Program-made: the position numbers and the translations under genes
NCBI GenBank assembly: GCA_009774655.1
Contig: VSOD01000002.1
Location: 1-40,644 of the forward strand
Source: Lachnospiraceae bacterium
GTDB lineage: Bacteria > Bacillota > Clostridia > Lachnospirales > Lachnospiraceae
DNA length: 40,644 bases
Direction of reading: 5' to 3'
In this document: in pieces, positions 5,170 to 31,350 of the stretch
How positions within the stretch are numbered: position 1 is the first letter of the stretch
How the letters are laid out: each line of letters starts with the position of its first letter
The notes under the pieces: model-generated
The model's input: the letters and a program-made list of their open reading frames with translations, nothing else
The model's database searches: none
Told to the model about the DNA's origin: nothing

Positions 5170-6528
5170 TTATGCAAAGAACGAAACAACAAGCGCCACC
5201 ACAAATCCGGTTCCGCCTACCAGCGTCTCCATGATTGTCCATGTCTTAAGGGTCGTCTTTTCATCCATCCCCACCAGTGACTTTACCAGCCAGAACCCGG
5301 AATCATTGAAATGTGAACATACCGTCGCTCCACCGGCCACTGCCGCCGTCGTGCAGGCCAGATACAGAGGTGACAGATCCGCGATCCCCGGCATCGCCGC
5401 AATAATGCCTGCTGCCATCGTCATGGCCACCGTCGCGGAACCTACACAGATCCTGACTAACGCCGCCACGATAAACGCCACCACCACGATCGGCAGCTTC
5501 GCCGAAGACACCGCATTGCCGATCAGATCACCCAAACCGGAATACTGCAGCATATACCGCAGCACACCGCCGCAGGCCGTTACCAGCAGGATCAGCCCCG
5601 TAGGCTCCAGCGACTTCGTCATGATCTTTTCCAACTCATCCATCTTGTAACCATGTTTTAATCCAAGTATCAGCATCGCCGCGATCGTTGCGATCAGCAG
5701 CGCCACAAAAGGCTCTCCCAGGAAACCGAAGATCGGTGCCAGACCGCTCAGCGCCGGCACAACCCCCGCTACGGAATCCAGAATGATCAGTACCAGAGGA
5801 ATCAGGATGATCCCTACGATAGTCCAGAACTTCGGCAGCTTCGACTCATCGAAATCCGCCTGGTTCGCCACATGCTCCGGCACCGGAACCATGTACTTAT
5901 TGCCGCAGATGGAACCCCACACAGGCCCCGCTACCACCATTGCCACGATACCGCACAGCACACCTACCATAATGACCCAGCCCAGTTCCACATTCAGCAT
6001 GGTAGCCACCAGCACCGGTCCCGGCGTAGGCGGAATAAACGCATGACCCACTGCCAGTCCTGCCAAAAGCGGGATCACATAAAAAAGGGAAGAGCGTTTC
6101 GTCCGCTTCGCCAGCGAGAATGCCAGCGGGATCAGAATGATCAATCCGGCGTCGAAAAATACCGGCATGGCGATGACCAGACCTGTAATACCCAGCGCCC
6201 AGGCCGCTTTCTTATCGCCGAACCACCGGACCATACTGACCGCCAGTGTCTGCGCGCCTCCCGAGGCCTCCAGGATCGCTCCGAACATGGATCCCAGCCC
6301 TACCAGCAGCGCAATTCCTTTTAACGTGTTCCCGATACCGTCATTTACCGCCGTCACAATATTCTCGAAAGGCATCCCCGCCCCGAGTCCGATCACGATC
6401 GCTCCCACCAATATGGAAACCATCGCCTGCACCTTAAATTTAATGATCAACAAAAGTAATACCACAAGCCCCAGAATTGCCGCTGTCACCAATCTGGTCG
6501 GATTTAAAGCCATTGCTTCACCAGCCAT
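5170..6528 (-). CDS. gntP: Gluconate:H+ symporter family permease (GntP)
   Basis: 452 residues, almost entirely hydrophobic, with about 12-14 membrane segments, as usual for the GntP family. Family landmarks are the proline-rich FIPPTPGPV near the middle and CSHFNDSGFWLVKSLVGM followed by KTWTIMETLVGGTGF near the C-terminus. It should import gluconate or a related sugar acid driven by protons. The start at 6528 is chosen because AGGAGGG lies 8 nt before it. It is the first gene of the catabolic operon and is preceded by a good promoter with palindromic operators, so regulation by the upstream GntR protein is expected. The exact acid transported is not fixed by the sequence. Confidence 0.92.
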   Translation of the reverse strand: MAGEAMALNPTRLVTAAILGLVVLLLLIIKFKVQAMVSILVGAIVIGLGAGMPFENIVTAVNDGIGNTLKGIALLVGLGSMFGAILEASGGAQTLAVSMVRWFGDKKAAWALGITGLVIAMPVFFDAGLIILIPLAFSLAKRTKRSSLFYVIPLLAGLAVGHAFIPPTPGPVLVATMLNVELGWVIMVGVLCGIVAMVVAGPVWGSICGNKYMVPVPEHVANQADFDESKLPKFWTIVGIILIPLVLIILDSVAGVVPALSGLAPIFGFLGEPFVALLIATIAAMLILGLKHGYKMDELEKIMTKSLEPTGLILLVTACGGVLRYMLQYSGLGDLIGNAVSSAKLPIVVVAFIVAALVRICVGSATVAMTMAAGIIAAMPGIADLSPLYLACTTAAVAGGATVCSHFNDSGFWLVKSLVGMDEKTTLKTWTIMETLVGGTGFVVALVVSFFA

Positions 6529-6585
6529 TATTTGAACCCTCCTGTTTTACCGTTATGATTGATTTAATACACTTCACTATCTTTT

Positions 6586-27426: not shown

Positions 27427-27449
27427 AACTTACCTCCTTGTTATACACT

Positions 27450-27469
27450 GCCGTAAATCCTTTTACAGC
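27450..27469 (-). promoter_or_regulatory. Probable CsrA-binding hairpin in the leader of the distal flagellin gene
   Basis: On the minus strand GCTGTAAA pairs with TTTACGGC (one G-U) around an AGGA loop, 11 nt upstream of the AAGGAGG ribosome site. GGA in a hairpin loop plus a second GGA in the ribosome site is the CsrA-binding layout. The proximal flagellin copy has the equivalent hairpin with a U-A to C-G exchange. Confidence 0.65.
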
Positions 27470-27544
27470 ATTCTTTTTGTACAAAATATTTTTATTCCTT
27501 AAACCTTTATTGCTTAAACCAATACAGCGTTAAGACAGGACTCA

Positions 27545-28603
27545 TCAGCCAAGTAAAGAAAGTGCCAGCTGATTGCTCTGGTTCGCCTGCGACAGCATGG
27601 ATGTGCCTGCCTGCTGCAAAATGTTGTTGTTAGCATATCTAACCATTTCTGTCGCGATATCCGTATCTCGGATCTGTGCTTCTGCGGATGTGGTGTTCTC
27701 TACAATGTTATCCAAGTTACTGATCGTATGCTCCAGTCTGTTCTGGATTGCACCAAGGTCAGAGCGCTGCTGGGATACATCTTTAATCGCATGCTTTGCA
27801 AATGCATTCAAAGCTGCAAAATCTGCTGCCGTAGGTGCATCTGTCAACTTACTATTTACTACCTGATTATTTGCTCCGTCGATATACGTCTGATCACCAT
27901 CAATCGCGTCATAGGTATCTTTATCCTTGACATCGCTTTTATCAAACTCATAAAACTTGGACAACATATTTGTAACAAACGTCGCTTTACCATCGGCATC
28001 CAGTTCTCCAGTTTCATAGTTTTTGTTATCCGTACTGTTTGTATCATCAGCCTCAGTGTTGGATACTCCAAATTTCACTTTATCCACTGCCGCATTCGCG
28101 ATCAACTCATTGGTCTTCATATTCTTGATCGTAATAGAAATATGCTGACCGGACTCCGCGCCAACCTGCAGTCCCTTATTGGTAAAAGAACCATCCAACA
28201 GACTCTGCTCATTGAATGTAGTCGTACTCTGCACGCGGTCAATCTCGCTCATCAGCTGCTTAACCTCAGCCTGAATATAGCTGCGGTCTGTGGTCGTCAA
28301 TGTACCGTTCTCACCCTTTACAGCCAGCTCATTCATTCTCTGCAGCATATCCTGCACTTCATTCAGCGCACCCTCTGCTGTCTGCACACAGGAGATACCA
28401 TCCTGAGCGTTTGCAGATGCCTGTGTCAGTCCACGGATCTGTCTTCTCATCTTCTCGGAAATAGATAAGCCTGCTGCATCATCCGCTGCACGGTTGATCT
28501 TATAACCGGACGATAACTTCTCCGTTGACTTCGCCTGCGCCTTTGTCGTAAGGCCCAGCATTCTGTTGGAATTCATTGCTGTAATGTTGTGTTGTACTAC
28601 CAT
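27545..28603 (-). CDS. fliC: Flagellin (proximal copy)
   Basis: 352 residues with the same N- and C-terminal filament domains as the distal copy. The middle differs (about residues 165-265, with NTEADDTNSTDNKNYETGEL and DKDTYDAIDGDQTYIDGANN), and is where surface exposure is expected. Two strongly similar neighbours allow gene conversion of the conserved parts and mixed filaments. The leader has AAGGAGG at the ribosome site and a GGA-loop hairpin. The gene lies 193 bp downstream of csrA on the same strand; only a weak sigma-28-like -10 is seen in that gap. Confidence 0.96.
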   Translation of the reverse strand: MVVQHNITAMNSNRMLGLTTKAQAKSTEKLSSGYKINRAADDAAGLSISEKMRRQIRGLTQASANAQDGISCVQTAEGALNEVQDMLQRMNELAVKGENGTLTTTDRSYIQAEVKQLMSEIDRVQSTTTFNEQSLLDGSFTNKGLQVGAESGQHISITIKNMKTNELIANAAVDKVKFGVSNTEADDTNSTDNKNYETGELDADGKATFVTNMLSKFYEFDKSDVKDKDTYDAIDGDQTYIDGANNQVVNSKLTDAPTAADFAALNAFAKHAIKDVSQQRSDLGAIQNRLEHTISNLDNIVENTTSAEAQIRDTDIATEMVRYANNNILQQAGTSMLSQANQSNQLALSLLG

Positions 28604-28796: not shown

Positions 28797-29075
28797 CTAT
28801 ACCGCTTTCACATCTTTTCCGGCTGCCTGCCTGCTGCCGCTCTTTTTCTTCCGGTACTTCTCCGGAAGATCCGGCACCGCATAGTAATGTGAAAGCGGCT
28901 CCTCTCCATCCGCATCGGCTGCTTTTGCCTCGATCACCTTACTGCGGACCACATTGACGTCCTTCGGAATGTCCAGCATCACGCGGGTATGGTTTTTGCT
29001 GCCGCCCAGAAAAACAATCTTGATATCATCTCCTATCATCAGATATTCTTCCGTGCTCACCGTCAGTCTTAACAT
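28797..29075 (-). CDS. csrA: CsrA-family translational regulator, atypical
   Basis: 92 residues from ATG 29075, with GGGAGG 7 nt before it. The CsrA core is clear: MLRLTVSTEEYLMIGDDIKI then VFLGGSKNHTRVMLDIPKDV and NVVRSKVIEA, with Arg44 of the RNA-binding surface conserved. The protein is atypical in two ways: positions 6-7, normally Arg-Arg or Arg-Lys, are Val-Ser, and a charged C-terminal tail of about 30 residues (DLPEKYRKKKSGSRQ) follows the usual end. CsrA represses flagellin translation in Bacillus subtilis by binding the hag leader. Here it is immediately upstream of two flagellin genes with matching leader hairpins. No fliW, the usual antagonist, is in the window. An in-frame extension to 29270 crosses the inverted repeat and has no ribosome site. 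Confidence 0.85.
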   Translation of the reverse strand: MLRLTVSTEEYLMIGDDIKIVFLGGSKNHTRVMLDIPKDVNVVRSKVIEAKAADADGEEPLSHYYAVPDLPEKYRKKKSGSRQAAGKDVKAV

Positions 29076-29197
29076 TCTTACACCTCCCGCAAATTGCTTT
29101 TTTCCAAAACCGTCACTCTTTCTGCCAACTTTCGAACGCATCCTTCGGAAAACAGAACCTCCGTCCGAACGCTTACTGCAAAAATATACCCATCTGC

Positions 29198-29228
29198 AAT
29201 GCAACAGTTGTATAAGAAGTGTTGCATT
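29198..29228. repeat. Left inverted repeat (recombination site) of the invertible segment
   Basis: Arms AATGCAACAGTT and AAGTGTTGCATT flank the asymmetric 7-bp spacer GTATAAG (29210-29216). The reverse complement of the right repeat differs at a single base (G at 29207). The outer arm mismatch weakens its hairpin, and the flank toward csrA has no T-tract. Confidence 0.93.
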
Positions 29229-29248
29229 GCTGCAGTCTGTTGTATAGT
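29222..29248 (+). promoter_or_regulatory. Possible promoter of the recombinase gene
   Basis: TTGCAT (29222-29227) lies in the inner arm of the left repeat and TATAGT at 29243-29248, with a short 15-bp spacer. Since both repeats share the inner arm, the promoter would survive inversion. Confidence 0.4.
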
Positions 29249-29291
29249 AATGGAGACCCGGAGAAATCAATTCACAGAAAGGAGCATCATC

Positions 29292-29873
29292 ATGAGCACA
29301 ACGTACCCCATTAAGAGTGAAGAAAAACTGAAAAAATTTAAAGAGTATTATCTGTTCATCAAACCTGTCTGCCGAAATTACGCCATGATCATATTAGGAT
29401 TAAATACAGCGTTCAGAATCGGCGACCTTTTAAGTTTACAGTGGCGGGATGTATTCAGCGAGAAAAAGAACTGCTTCAAGGATCATATATGCATCACGGA
29501 GCAGAAGACCGGAAAAGAACGAAGTGTGGCAGTCAATGCCAGCGTTTCAGATGCTTTGTATATTTTACGGGAAAAGGAAATCCATAGAGAAGAAACCCGG
29601 TATCTGTTCCCGAATGGAAGAAAAGGCTCAGGCCATCTCTCCCGTTCCCAGGCGTTCCGCATCATCAAGGAAGCGGCTGAATATGCAGGACTGGAGGAAC
29701 ACATAAGCTGCCACTCTCTCCGCAAGACTTTCGGTTATCATGCCTGGAAACAGGGCGTGCAGCCTGCTCTTTTGATGGAACTGTACAATCATTCCTCCTA
29801 CCGCGTTACCAAACAATACCTTTGCATTGAACAGGACGACAAAGACAGAGTCTATTTAACTGTACAGCTATAA
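29292..29873 (+). CDS. Small tyrosine recombinase (FimB/XerD-like DNA invertase)
   Basis: 193 residues from ATG 29292, with AAAGGAG about 8 nt before it. It consists almost only of the catalytic domain: Arg42 (NTAFRIGDLLSLQW), Lys72 (TEQKTGKERSV), His141 and Arg144 (CHSLRKTFGYHAW), His167 (YNHSSYRVT) and the nucleophile Tyr176 (TKQYLCIE) are all present. The N-terminal core-binding domain of phage integrases is absent, as in fimbrial invertases FimB and FimE. The gene lies inside a pair of 31-bp inverted repeats built like tyrosine-recombinase sites. The likely job is inversion of its own segment, switching a flagellar promoter next to csrA and the flagellin genes. Confidence 0.92.
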   Translation: MSTTYPIKSEEKLKKFKEYYLFIKPVCRNYAMIILGLNTAFRIGDLLSLQWRDVFSEKKNCFKDHICITEQKTGKERSVAVNASVSDALYILREKEIHREETRYLFPNGRKGSGHLSRSQAFRIIKEAAEYAGLEEHISCHSLRKTFGYHAWKQGVQPALLMELYNHSSYRVTKQYLCIEQDDKDRVYLTVQL

Positions 29874-29902
29874 CTATTTTTTCTTATTTTTAAAATATGC
29901 CC

Positions 29903-29929
29903 TAAACTATTATGCCGCGGGTCCGATAT
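29903..29929 (+). promoter_or_regulatory. Sigma-28/sigma-D type (flagellar) promoter inside the invertible segment
   Basis: TAAA (29903-29906), a spacer of exactly 15 bp (29907-29921) and TCCGATAT (29922-29929) match the flagellar sigma consensus TAAA-N15-GCCGATAA/T at 11 of 12 fixed positions. It points right, with the start site expected near 29936, 10 bp before the right inverted repeat. No gene lies on the plus strand downstream; phosphofructokinase is on the opposite strand. Confidence 0.72.
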
Positions 29930-29945
29930 ATATAATGTAAGTCAA

Positions 29946-29976
29946 AATGCAACACTTCTTATACAAGTGTTGCATT
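29946..29976. repeat. Right inverted repeat, doubling as an intrinsic terminator
   Basis: Arms AATGCAACACTT and AAGTGTTGCATT are perfect complements around CTTATAC (29958-29964). On the plus strand the 12-bp stem is followed by TTTTTG, a proper intrinsic terminator for the recombinase transcript and for the sigma-28 promoter in this orientation. Confidence 0.92.
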
Positions 29977-30041
29977 TTTGTCTGCATTTATCTAATAGAA
30001 TATCCCGGTAAAACCTTTTCATACACAGAAAAACAAAAAGC

Positions 30042-30083
30042 GGGTGAGTGCAGGATGCCAAATAAGCAGCCCACTCTCACCCA
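30042..30083 (-). terminator. Terminator of the phosphofructokinase gene
   Basis: On the minus strand GGGTGAGAGTG pairs with CACTCACCC (bulge of two) and is followed by GCTTTTTGTTTTTC, about 40 bp past the stop. Confidence 0.8.
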
Positions 30084-30123
30084 CATGTGTTCTTTATATC
30101 TTTTTACAACTTATTTCACCTGA

Positions 30124-31350
30124 TTATTTACGTACCAGATGTCTCGGCAGACCATTCACGAACAACGGCTGCAGCTCGCCCATGATCAGCGGTCTTGCAT
30201 ATTTCTCATAGCCTTCTGTCAGTCCCTTGCCGTCCTCTGTGATCCACTCGTCGGGAACGTTTCTCTCTACGTTGGCGATCGCGTGGATATCATATGCGCT
30301 TGTGCCGCACTGGTAAGGATCGTCACCGTTTCTGTCCAGTGTGATCATCATGCCGGTCTTGCCTTCCTCTGCCGCCACAACTGCGTCGTGACCTACCTGG
30401 AATGCCTCGTTGATGTCTGTCAGGGAAGCAAGATGGGTAGCTGCCCTCTGTAAGGTAGAGAACTCAATCGCACGTGTCTTAAGCCCTGTCTCAGCAGCGA
30501 TCTTATCTGCCAGCATAACAGCCGTACCGGACATCTGCTTGTGTCCGAACGCATCCACTGCCACTTCTCTGCCGATCTCACATACATATCTGCCGTCTGC
30601 AACCTTGACACCCTCAGATACCGCGATCACAACGGAAGACTTGTTAGCTGCCAGCTCTTTAACATCTGCAACAAACTTGTCGATATCGAATACTCTCTCC
30701 GGCAGATAGATCGCATCACATCCCTGGCAGTCGTCACCCTTCGCCAGCGCTGCGGCTGCGGTCAACCAGCCTGCATTACGTCCCATGATCTCCACGATAC
30801 ATACAGTAGGCTTCTTCGCACCGAAGGACTCGTTGTCACGGATGATCTCCTTTACGGAAGTTGCGATATACTTCGCAGCGGAACCGTAACCCGGGCAGTG
30901 ATCCGTTACCGGCAGATCGTTATCAATGGTCTTCGGAACGCCCATGAACCGCTGCGGCTTGTTGTGTGCTGCCGCATAGTCGGACAACATCTTAACGGTA
31001 TCCATGGAATCATTACCACCGGCATAGAACAGACACTCGATGTCATGCTTCTCCATGATCTCGAATACCTTCTCATATACATCCTCATGTCCTTCGATCT
31101 TCGGCATTTTAAAACGGCAGGAACCGAGGAATGCAGAAGGAGTTCTCTTTAACAGCTCAATCCCGGTCTCGTCGTTCAGATACTCGCCCAGATCGATCAT
31201 TCTATCCTCTAAAAATCCCTCAATACCATGAACCATACCATAAATCTTCTTAACCCCCAGCTTCTTGGCAGCAGCGTAAACGCCTGCCACAGAAGAATTG
31301 ATTACGGCTGTGGGGCCGCCGGACTGACCAACAACAATATTTCCTTTCAT
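30124..31350 (-). CDS. pfp: 6-phosphofructokinase, pyrophosphate-dependent type
   Basis: 408 residues. It phosphorylates fructose 6-phosphate to fructose 1,6-bisphosphate. Substrate motifs are GQSGGPTAVIN (8-18), YAGGNDSMDT (109-118) and the catalytic PKTIDNDLPVTDH (139-151), then EIMGRNAGWL. In ATP enzymes the phosphoryl-donor loop reads GGDGS; here the fourth residue is Asp (GGNDS) and Lys140 replaces Gly, the combination that marks pyrophosphate users. AAAGGAG precedes the ATG. It is a single-gene transcript. Confidence 0.9.
   Translation of the reverse strand: MKGNIVVGQSGGPTAVINSSVAGVYAAAKKLGVKKIYGMVHGIEGFLEDRMIDLGEYLNDETGIELLKRTPSAFLGSCRFKMPKIEGHEDVYEKVFEIMEKHDIECLFYAGGNDSMDTVKMLSDYAAAHNKPQRFMGVPKTIDNDLPVTDHCPGYGSAAKYIATSVKEIIRDNESFGAKKPTVCIVEIMGRNAGWLTAAAALAKGDDCQGCDAIYLPERVFDIDKFVADVKELAANKSSVVIAVSEGVKVADGRYVCEIGREVAVDAFGHKQMSGTAVMLADKIAAETGLKTRAIEFSTLQRAATHLASLTDINEAFQVGHDAVVAAEEGKTGMMITLDRNGDDPYQCGTSAYDIHAIANVERNVPDEWITEDGKGLTEGYEKYARPLIMGELQPLFVNGLPRHLVRK

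What the first reader, a model, noticed from the sequence alone, without database searches (positions are those of the whole stretch)
29198..29976. Self-encoded phase switch next to csrA and flagellin genes, apparently in OFF orientation
Seen: 31-bp inverted repeats with one mismatch, each with 12-bp arms and an asymmetric 7-bp spacer, enclosing a FimB-like tyrosine recombinase with an intact catalytic set, plus a sigma-28-like promoter (TAAA-N15-TCCGATAT) at the right end pointing away from csrA-fliC-fliC. Known: tyrosine recombinases invert DNA between such sites (fim switch; RecV-controlled flagellar switch of Clostridioides difficile). Inference: flipping would place the promoter about 160 nt upstream of csrA, directed at it, and turn on the flagellins. 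I see no good promoter in the 122 bp between csrA and the left repeat, which fits an OFF state. I know of no described switch with this csrA-flagellin layout.
Basis: partly seen in the sequence, partly recalled or inferred. Interest (0 to 1): 0.93.

Follow-up and report, generated by a model that had tools for sequence, protein, structure and literature searches.

The report
Self-flipping switch for alternative flagellin genes
A bacterium, likely a gut Lachnospiraceae, carries a 779-base DNA segment, bounded by matched inverted repeats and holding a recombinase gene and an outward-facing sigma-28-type promoter sequence, that likely flips to turn on a second set of flagellin genes together with their own predicted RNA-binding regulator; in 82 of 85 such loci (this one included) whose direction could be read the promoter points away from those genes, and the system would be a Gram-positive counterpart of Salmonella's classic flagellar switch.

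Summary
In detail: 31-bp inverted repeats (one mismatch), a FimB-like tyrosine recombinase with six catalytic residues, and the window's only exact TAAA-N15-TCCGATAT motif, pointing away from csrA-fliC-fliC. It is a conserved system: 103 of 131 distinct loci (window included) have csrA beside the recombinase. Where promoter direction could be read, 82 point away (OFF) and 3 toward (ON). The crossover core is identical at both sites in 77 of 81 loci although 49 core sequences occur; recombinase dN/dS is about 0.05 against the nearest relative. Two additions. (1) These are likely alternative flagellins: 61 of 62 switch-locus flagellins lack a sigma-28 motif within 400 nt, while 7 of 8 congeneric genomes also hold flagellins with a fixed one, and all 8 a separate fliW-csrA pair; the switch csrA is a distinct paralog, and flagellin leaders carry covarying GGA-loop hairpins. 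(2) The far recombination site tends to be a perfect palindrome with a T-tract, so it likely doubles as terminator in OFF; the csrA-side site is mismatched and lacks the tract. The layout resembles Salmonella Hin/FljB/FljA built from unrelated parts. Inversion, transcription and CsrA targets are untested; no reads were available.

The parts
29198..29228 (.). csrA-side recombination site (31 nt); core GTATAAG at 29210-29216; outer arm has one mismatch to its own palindrome
29946..29976 (.). far recombination site (31 nt); core CTTATAC (+ strand) at 29958-29964; perfect palindrome
29292..29873 (+). FimB-size tyrosine recombinase, 193 aa, catalytic R42 K75 H141 R144 H167 Y176
   Evidence: PF00589; NCBIfam; residues; dN 0.032, dS 0.591 against L003
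29903..29929 (+). sigma-28 (SigD) type promoter motif TAAA-N15-TCCGATAT, inside the segment, pointing away from csrA (OFF)
29944..29979 (+). far site plus T-tract: hairpin predicted to end the OFF transcript
   Evidence: fold of 29936-29990: -18.8 kcal/mol, z -5.05; own criterion met; the tool's stricter scanner found none
28797..29075 (-). csrA paralog (92 aa) of the switch type, with a C-terminal extension unlike the main CsrA of relatives
   Evidence: PF02599; comparison
27545..28603 (-). flagellin 1 (352 aa)
   Evidence: PF00669, PF00700
26413..27426 (-). flagellin 2 (337 aa)
   Evidence: PF00669, PF00700
28626..28647 (-). leader hairpin of flagellin 1 with GGA in the loop (CsrA-site-like)
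   Evidence: folded; in the alignment counted
27449..27470 (-). leader hairpin of flagellin 2 with GGA in the loop
   Evidence: folded
30124..31350 (-). phosphofructokinase gene on the far side, convergent with the OFF promoter (context only)
   Evidence: PF00365

Best explanation
This is a self-contained, likely invertible, promoter switch for what are likely alternative flagellins: a short tyrosine recombinase gene and an outward-facing sigma-28-type promoter sequence lie together between two inverted repeats, beside a csrA paralog and two flagellin genes, and the promoter sequence now points away from those genes. The recombinase is predicted to act on the two 31-nt sites and flip the segment (inferred). 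In the present orientation the sigma-28 transcript would run within about 10 nt into the far recombination site, a perfect hairpin followed by T's, and stop there (inferred). After a flip the same inner half-site would be joined to the csrA-side outer arm, which is mismatched and has no T-tract, so transcription would read through into csrA-fliC-fliC (inferred). In relatives, other flagellins have their own fixed sigma-28 motif (sequence shown), so OFF need not mean non-motile. The CsrA paralog would bind the GGA-loop hairpins that precede flagellin genes and damp flagellin translation, either in its own operon or, like FljA of Salmonella, of the other flagellins (inferred; target untested).
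For: Anatomy. Conservation: 69 of 80 named loci have csrA next to the recombinase and 66 of 80 also flagellin beyond it; 103 of 131 distinct loci have csrA. Outward-facing sigma-28-type motif inside the segment in 85 of 91 csrA-adjacent loci with repeats, inward-facing in 2 of 91; strict form 59 against 0. Both directions: 82 away, 3 toward (L029, L042, L051), 6 unresolved, of 91. L051 (ON) and L050/L033 (OFF) share 85% recombinase identity and homologous csrA-fliC flanks. Core identical at both sites in 77 of 81 loci with 49 distinct cores; re-paired at random mean 3.1, most 9. Site differences: 208 in outer arms, 94 in inner arms, 5 in cores. Terminator design: T's in 12 nt outward 8.5 far against 2.4 csrA side, far higher in 81 of 81; hairpin -12.5 against -8.0 kcal/mol; terminator-like by my criterion at 68 of 81 far sites, 0 of 81 csrA sides in the ON arrangement; T's far higher in 8 of 8 loci that are ON or of the second architecture. 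Alternative flagellins: 61 of 62 switch flagellins have no sigma-28 motif within 400 nt, while 9 flagellins in 7 of 8 genomes have one starting 156-162 nt upstream; fliW with a 72-aa CsrA elsewhere in 8 of 8; fliA over cut-off in 8 of 8. Leader hairpin: 47 of 62, mononucleotide shuffles mean 1.4, most 4; 33 cells changed on both sides against 11.8 shuffled, on a selected set. Recombinase dN/dS about 0.05.
Against: No reads, PCR or expression data; inversion is inferred from loci of different species, not seen in one strain, and only 3 ON loci were found, none in the window's close relatives. The pairs of sites were found by their similarity, which favours identical cores. The tool's own terminator scanner finds no site in 29000-30200, and the far site also looks terminator-like read inward in 41 of 81 loci. 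12 of 103 csrA-adjacent loci have no detected repeats. In L042 the csrA-side site is less mismatched (2) than the far one (4); among 81 OFF loci this is so in 8, with 18 ties. In G056 switch and main flagellin genes are 99.4% identical, so there a flip would hardly change the filament. The window's own assembly is not held, so its main flagellins are inferred from relatives; G075 showed no flagellin with a sigma-28 motif, and four further flagellins in G001, G075 and G044 have neither the motif nor a switch beside them. CsrA targets are unknown.
Confidence: 0.8

Rival explanations
1. One reading: a plain flagella ON/OFF switch, OFF cells making no flagella.
For: Promoter points away from csrA-fliC-fliC; no sigma-70-type site and no exact SigD motif in the 122 bp before csrA.
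Against: In 7 of 8 congeneric genomes other flagellins carry their own sigma-28 motif 156-162 nt upstream, and 8 of 8 have a separate fliW-csrA pair and fliA. The window's own genome could not be checked.
Confidence: 0.15
2. A switch that no longer flips in nature: fixed OFF, a silent flagellin store that matters only by exchange with the main flagellins.
For: 82 of 85 readable loci are OFF; switch and main flagellins of the same genome pair up in 4 of 7 genomes of the tree and are 99.4% identical in G056; 12 of 103 loci have no detected repeats.
Against: Recombinase dN/dS about 0.05, each catalytic residue kept in at least 128 of the 130-131 loci read, core identity in 77 of 81 loci, promoter 13-23 nt from the repeat where both were found, and 3 ON loci.
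Confidence: 0.12
3. The segment is a small mobile element whose ends are the repeats and which happened to insert upstream of csrA.
For: Tyrosine recombinase between inverted repeats; far-side flanks of L051 and five OFF relatives share no similarity.
Against: csrA lies beside it in 69 of 80 and flagellin beyond in 66 of 80 named loci; the sigma-28-type motif faces out of the segment in 85 of 91 loci and inward in 2; the terminator asymmetry lies in the outer arms and flanks, outside the segment.
Confidence: 0.04
4. The palindromes act only as RNA or protein-binding elements (terminator, operator) and the recombinase works elsewhere.
For: The far palindrome plus T-tract looks like a terminator.
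Against: Does not explain identical asymmetric cores at both sites of a locus nor the loci with the opposite promoter direction.
Confidence: 0.03

Closest known systems
Salmonella Hin / fljB-fljA flagellar phase variation
   Same: The invertible segment holds the promoter of the alternative flagellin; the default orientation faces away from it; the operon also holds a post-transcriptional repressor of the other flagellin (PMC2652032, passages). That the recombinase gene lies inside the segment and that fljB uses sigma-28 is recalled.
   Different: Tyrosine instead of serine recombinase; CsrA paralog instead of FljA, and upstream instead of downstream of the flagellin; far site shaped like a terminator; several copies in some genomes.
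Clostridioides difficile flagellar switch (RecV, Cdi4)
   Same: Tyrosine recombinase switch with inverted repeats controlling flagella in a Gram-positive gut bacterium (PMC5386303, passages).
   Different: There the 154-bp switch lies in the 5' UTR of the early flgB operon, acts after initiation, and its recombinase RecV also acts on cwpV. Here promoter and recombinase are inside and flagellin genes are the target.
C. difficile cwpV switch
   Same: OFF explained by a proposed intrinsic terminator at the junction of repeat and inversion region (PMC2784873, passages).
   Different: In cwpV the promoter is outside and fixed; here the promoter flips and the recombination site itself is the hairpin.
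E. coli fim switch (FimB/FimE, fimS)
   Same: Tyrosine invertases acting on inverted repeats (PMC2784873, passages); NCBIfam invertase models match weakly. That they are short and move a promoter is recalled.
   Different: fimE lies next to fimS, not in it (PMC5386303, passages); target is a pilus operon.
Bacillus subtilis CsrA control of flagellin
   Same: CsrA inhibits flagellin gene expression (PMC3720852, passages); GGA hairpin plus Shine-Dalgarno as sites and FliW as antagonist are recalled.
   Different: The switch CsrA is a separate paralog with another C-terminus, behind a likely invertible promoter.

Membership tests
Invertible-promoter (tyrosine recombinase) phase switch | Inverted repeats flanking a promoter | tested here: met
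   (promoter by motif only)
Invertible-promoter (tyrosine recombinase) phase switch | Identical asymmetric crossover core in inverted orientation | tested here: met
   77 of 81 loci, none self-palindromic; window cores identical
Invertible-promoter (tyrosine recombinase) phase switch | Both orientations exist | tested here: met
   82 away, 3 toward across loci of different species; not shown within one strain
Invertible-promoter (tyrosine recombinase) phase switch | Recombinase-dependent inversion and orientation-dependent expression | not testable with these tools
   needs reads, PCR or reporters
FimB-like tyrosine invertases | R-K-H-R-H-Y catalytic set | tested here: met
FimB-like tyrosine invertases | About 200 aa, catalytic domain only | tested here: met
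   193 aa, PF00589 only
FimB-like tyrosine invertases | NCBIfam FimB/FimE-type invertase models over cut-off | tested here: not met
   NF007371 43 bits against 222, NF007370 33.4 against 221: alike in kind, not an ortholog
Salmonella Hin/FljBA | Serine recombinase Hin | tested here: not met
   tyrosine recombinase, so not a member; analogy only
Salmonella Hin/FljBA | Alternative flagellin besides a fixed one | tested here: met
   in relatives only: 7 of 8 genomes; the window's genome is not held
Salmonella Hin/FljBA | Co-transcribed repressor of the other flagellin | not testable with these tools
   CsrA paralog present and flagellin leaders carry GGA hairpins; target unknown
CsrA | CsrA domain with RNA-contact residues L4 and R44 (recalled) | tested here: met
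   PF02599 57.4 bits against cut-off 27; L4 and R44 present in the sequence
CsrA | NCBIfam csrA equivalog cut-off | tested here: not met
   36 of 73 bits and 28.5 of 70.1 bits: a divergent paralog

The most novel reading that the evidence does not exclude
Gut Lachnospiraceae independently re-invented Salmonella's flagellar phase variation from unrelated parts: a tyrosine recombinase for Hin and a dedicated CsrA paralog for FljA, so that flipping turns on the spare flagellins and at the same time silences the main ones; the recombination site doubles as the OFF terminator, the default in the gut is OFF, and genomes with two or three copies with different cores can mix flagellins combinatorially.
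Probability: 0.35. Interest if true: 0.88.

Novelty: new variant of a known kind. Interest (0 to 1): 0.78.

Why it matters
Flagellins of gut Lachnospiraceae are dominant immune antigens (recalled), yet what decides which flagellin is made is unclear; three Roseburia/Eubacterium flagellin genes had no recognisable promoter in earlier work (PMC3720852, passages). Relatives of this recombinase (E below 1e-40) occur in 40 of 77 genomes of one genus and 30 of 397 sampled genomes of the family, mostly beside csrA where examined (103 of 131 loci). That offers a testable answer, a possible second origin of flagellar phase variation, and recombination sites whose two outer arms appear shaped so that one ends transcription and the other lets it pass.

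Tried and rejected
Rejected or not pursued: (a) scoring state by recombinase/csrA direction gave 8 'ON' among 131 loci; reading the sequences showed that five of these (L077 second copy, L167, L172, L175, L200) have the recombinase reversed relative to a promoter-like sequence that still points away; one search confirmed three of the five by motif, L175 and L200 rest on eye; L029, L042 and L051 remain ON. (b) An earlier count mis-scored unoriented loci L083-L111 as ON and was replaced. (c) Loci with csrA but no flagellin: L010 has a run of N where the gene would be, L030's contig ends close by; only L073 (Roseburia faecis M72) remains. (d) Separate evolutionary lineage of switch flagellins: not supported, they interleave with the others (8 label changes, shuffled mean 7.6). 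(f) Ten paper searches listed, by title and start of abstract, no description of this arrangement; the library holds open-licence papers only, and of the listed papers only passages of five were read; a genome-wide inversion survey (PMC5903667) was seen in a listing only. (g) No structure was predicted and no homolog search of the large protein database was made.

Limits of counts: one search kept the best 80 of 163 relatives; one search used 81 of 83 OFF loci with repeats (two too near the end of the fetched DNA); one search found leaders at 54 loci only; the covariation count used 33 of those 54 first leaders, chosen mostly because one search had found a hairpin in them, so it leans toward the structure; sought only outward-facing motifs, so one search counted inward ones as a control; ended with a script error, 31 was rerun as 32 and the missing comparisons of 59 as 74. 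The 'core' is 7 nt in 68 and 8 nt in 13 of the 81 loci.

Full report
OBSERVATION. The two 31-nt repeats differ at one position, and that position lies in the outer arm; it breaks the palindrome on the csrA side, while the far site is a perfect palindrome.

A CONSERVED SYSTEM. A scan of one genome per species with the recombinase gave 163 relatives, best 80 kept; most titles name Lachnospiraceae or genera usually placed there, some only 'bacterium', Clostridiales, Ruminococcus sp. or Bacillus sp. In 69 of 80 a csrA lies next to the recombinase, in 66 of 80 with flagellin beyond it on the same strand. In the nearest held genus 40 of 77 genomes have a match below 1e-40 (counted from the list); in an even draw from the family 30 of 397. 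Pooling all fetched loci and removing duplicates left 131, window included; 103 have csrA adjacent, 91 of them with detected repeats. Inside these 91 segments a sigma-28-type motif faces outward in 85 and inward in 2; in strict form 59 against 0.

ORIENTATION. By promoter direction, 82 of the 91 point away from csrA, 3 point toward it (L029, L042, L051) and 6 were unresolved by the motif; 3 of 85 differs from evenness at p = 5e-21. Two of the six, L175 and L200, by eye have the promoter-like sequence pointing away. In L077 (second copy), L167 and L172 (and L175, L200 by eye) the recombinase gene is reversed relative to the promoter, so the promoter leaves by the recombinase's 5' end; it still points away. 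Thus promoter direction, not recombinase direction, is what stays. The ON locus L051 shares 85% recombinase identity with OFF loci L050 and L033 and a homologous csrA-fliC flank, but no similar far flank. Assemblies report the majority state, so OFF predominance is shown for assemblies only; its cause (biased flipping or selection) is open.

SITES. Over 81 OFF loci the two sites differ at 208 positions in the outer arms, 94 in the inner arms and 5 in the cores. Cores (7 nt in 68 loci, 8 in 13) are identical within 77 of 81 loci although 49 different cores occur; random re-pairing gives 3.1 on average and at most 9. Sites were located by mutual similarity, which inflates identity, but the contrast between core and arms and the variety of cores are not explained by that. 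In the eight assemblies tabulated with two or more repeat-bearing copies the cores differ between copies (for example L014, L022, L024).

TERMINATOR DESIGN. Outward of the far site 8.5 of 12 bases are T, outward of the csrA-side site 2.4 of 12; far exceeds near in 81 of 81 and in 8 of 8 loci that are ON or of the second architecture. The csrA-side palindrome has more mismatches than the far one in 55 loci, fewer in 8, equal in 18 (p = 1e-9). The predicted hairpin of the OFF transcript at the far site averages -12.5 kcal/mol, that of the ON transcript at the csrA side -8.0 (p = 3e-12; far stronger in 65, equal in 4). With an explicit criterion 68 of 81 far sites and 0 of 81 csrA-side sites (ON arrangement) are terminator-like; read inward 41 of 81 far sites are, too. 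Against this, the ready-made scanner, which counts T's only beyond the stem, finds no terminator in 29000-30200. The window's far site folds at -18.8 kcal/mol, z -5.05. The reading is that the outer arms, which never move, decide: one completes a terminator, the other breaks it.

WHICH FLAGELLINS. In 8 chosen congeneric genomes (of 77), each holds a fliA over cut-off, one fliW and next to it a 72-aa CsrA, apart from the switch loci. Nine flagellins in seven of the eight carry the TAAA-N-CGAT motif starting 156-162 nt before the start codon and, by eye in the folds, a hairpin with GGA in the loop. Four further flagellins of similar size (two in G001, one each in G075 and G044) have neither that motif nor a switch beside them. 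Of 62 flagellin leaders at 54 switch loci, 61 have no such motif within 400 nt, and 47 have a GGA-loop hairpin (mononucleotide shuffles 1.4 on average, most 4). On 33 of the 54 first leaders (a selected set) the hairpin covaries: 33 cells changed on both sides against 11.8 in shuffles (0 of 500 as high) and at most 18 when slid. The switch CsrA differs from the main CsrA along its length and in its C-terminal extension. So in ON state a second CsrA would appear together with second flagellins. Whether it acts on its own operon or silences the main flagellins is not tested. In a tree of 23 flagellins switch and other flagellins interleave; same-genome pairs form in G001, G040, G044 (support 82/84) and G056, not in G024, G025 or G075. 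In G056 the two genes are 99.4% identical with unrelated upstream DNA; the other same-genome pairs compared are 74-89% identical in their matching stretches. So exchange between loci has happened, and antigenic difference is not always the point. Against the window's flagellin 1 the first 150 residues are 86-99% and the last 85 are 81-100% identical, the middle 19-69% (one short fragment, G040.C117, left aside).

FUNCTIONALITY OF THE RECOMBINASE. dN 0.032, dS 0.591 between the window and L003; low ratios also in L020-L023, L032-L033, L045-L049 and L050-L033, with dS saturated or high in some pairs. Each catalytic residue is kept in at least 128 of the 130-131 loci read.

COMPARISON. Salmonella's hin segment holds the fljB promoter, its default orientation faces away from fljB, and FljA represses fliC (PMC2652032, passages read). 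Here the same arrangement is met with non-homologous parts, so it works like Hin/FljBA but is not a member. The C. difficile flagellar switch (PMC5386303, passages) and cwpV switch (PMC2784873, passages) are the nearest in phylum; cwpV gives a precedent for proposed termination at the repeat in OFF. A review of phase variation (PMC11868660, 12 of 19 passages shown) names Salmonella's Hin and, in the passages seen, no flagellin switch of this sort. Ten searches listed no paper whose title or abstract start describes it; paywalled work and large inversion surveys may hold it.

SHOWN: sequence anatomy, conservation, both promoter directions among species, site and leader statistics. INFERRED: flipping, transcription, termination, CsrA binding, biological role.

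Noticed in passing
L077 (second copy), L167, L172, L175, L200: Second architecture: recombinase reversed relative to the sigma-28-like promoter inside the segment; repeats contain GTAACA...GTTAC in four of the five.
   Followed up: partly
L130 and L128 (G056): Main and switch flagellin genes 99.4% identical over 948 bp with unrelated upstream DNA: recent exchange between a fixed-promoter and a switch locus.
   Followed up: partly
L051: ON-orientation locus followed by several csrA-fliC cassettes in tandem (3 csrA and 4 flagellin matches).
   Followed up: no
L073 (Roseburia faecis M72) 5567-6579: Switch-type recombinase, promoter-like sequence and csrA but no flagellin next to csrA; repeats imperfect and missed by the script.
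   Followed up: partly
L028 / L104: Recombinase gene broken (a TAA inside and two separate matching stretches) while repeats and promoter motif are intact: a possible locked OFF switch.
   Followed up: no
L193, L194, L195, L197, L198: Related recombinases between repeats without csrA or flagellin in the fetched DNA: other possible targets of this recombinase family.
   Followed up: no
L119 (G001:C12): A third CsrA-like type (34.8 bits, cut-off 27), also in G075 and G044.
   Followed up: no
L068: Flagellin genes on both sides of the recombinase form long inverted copies (about 290 nt or more).
   Followed up: no
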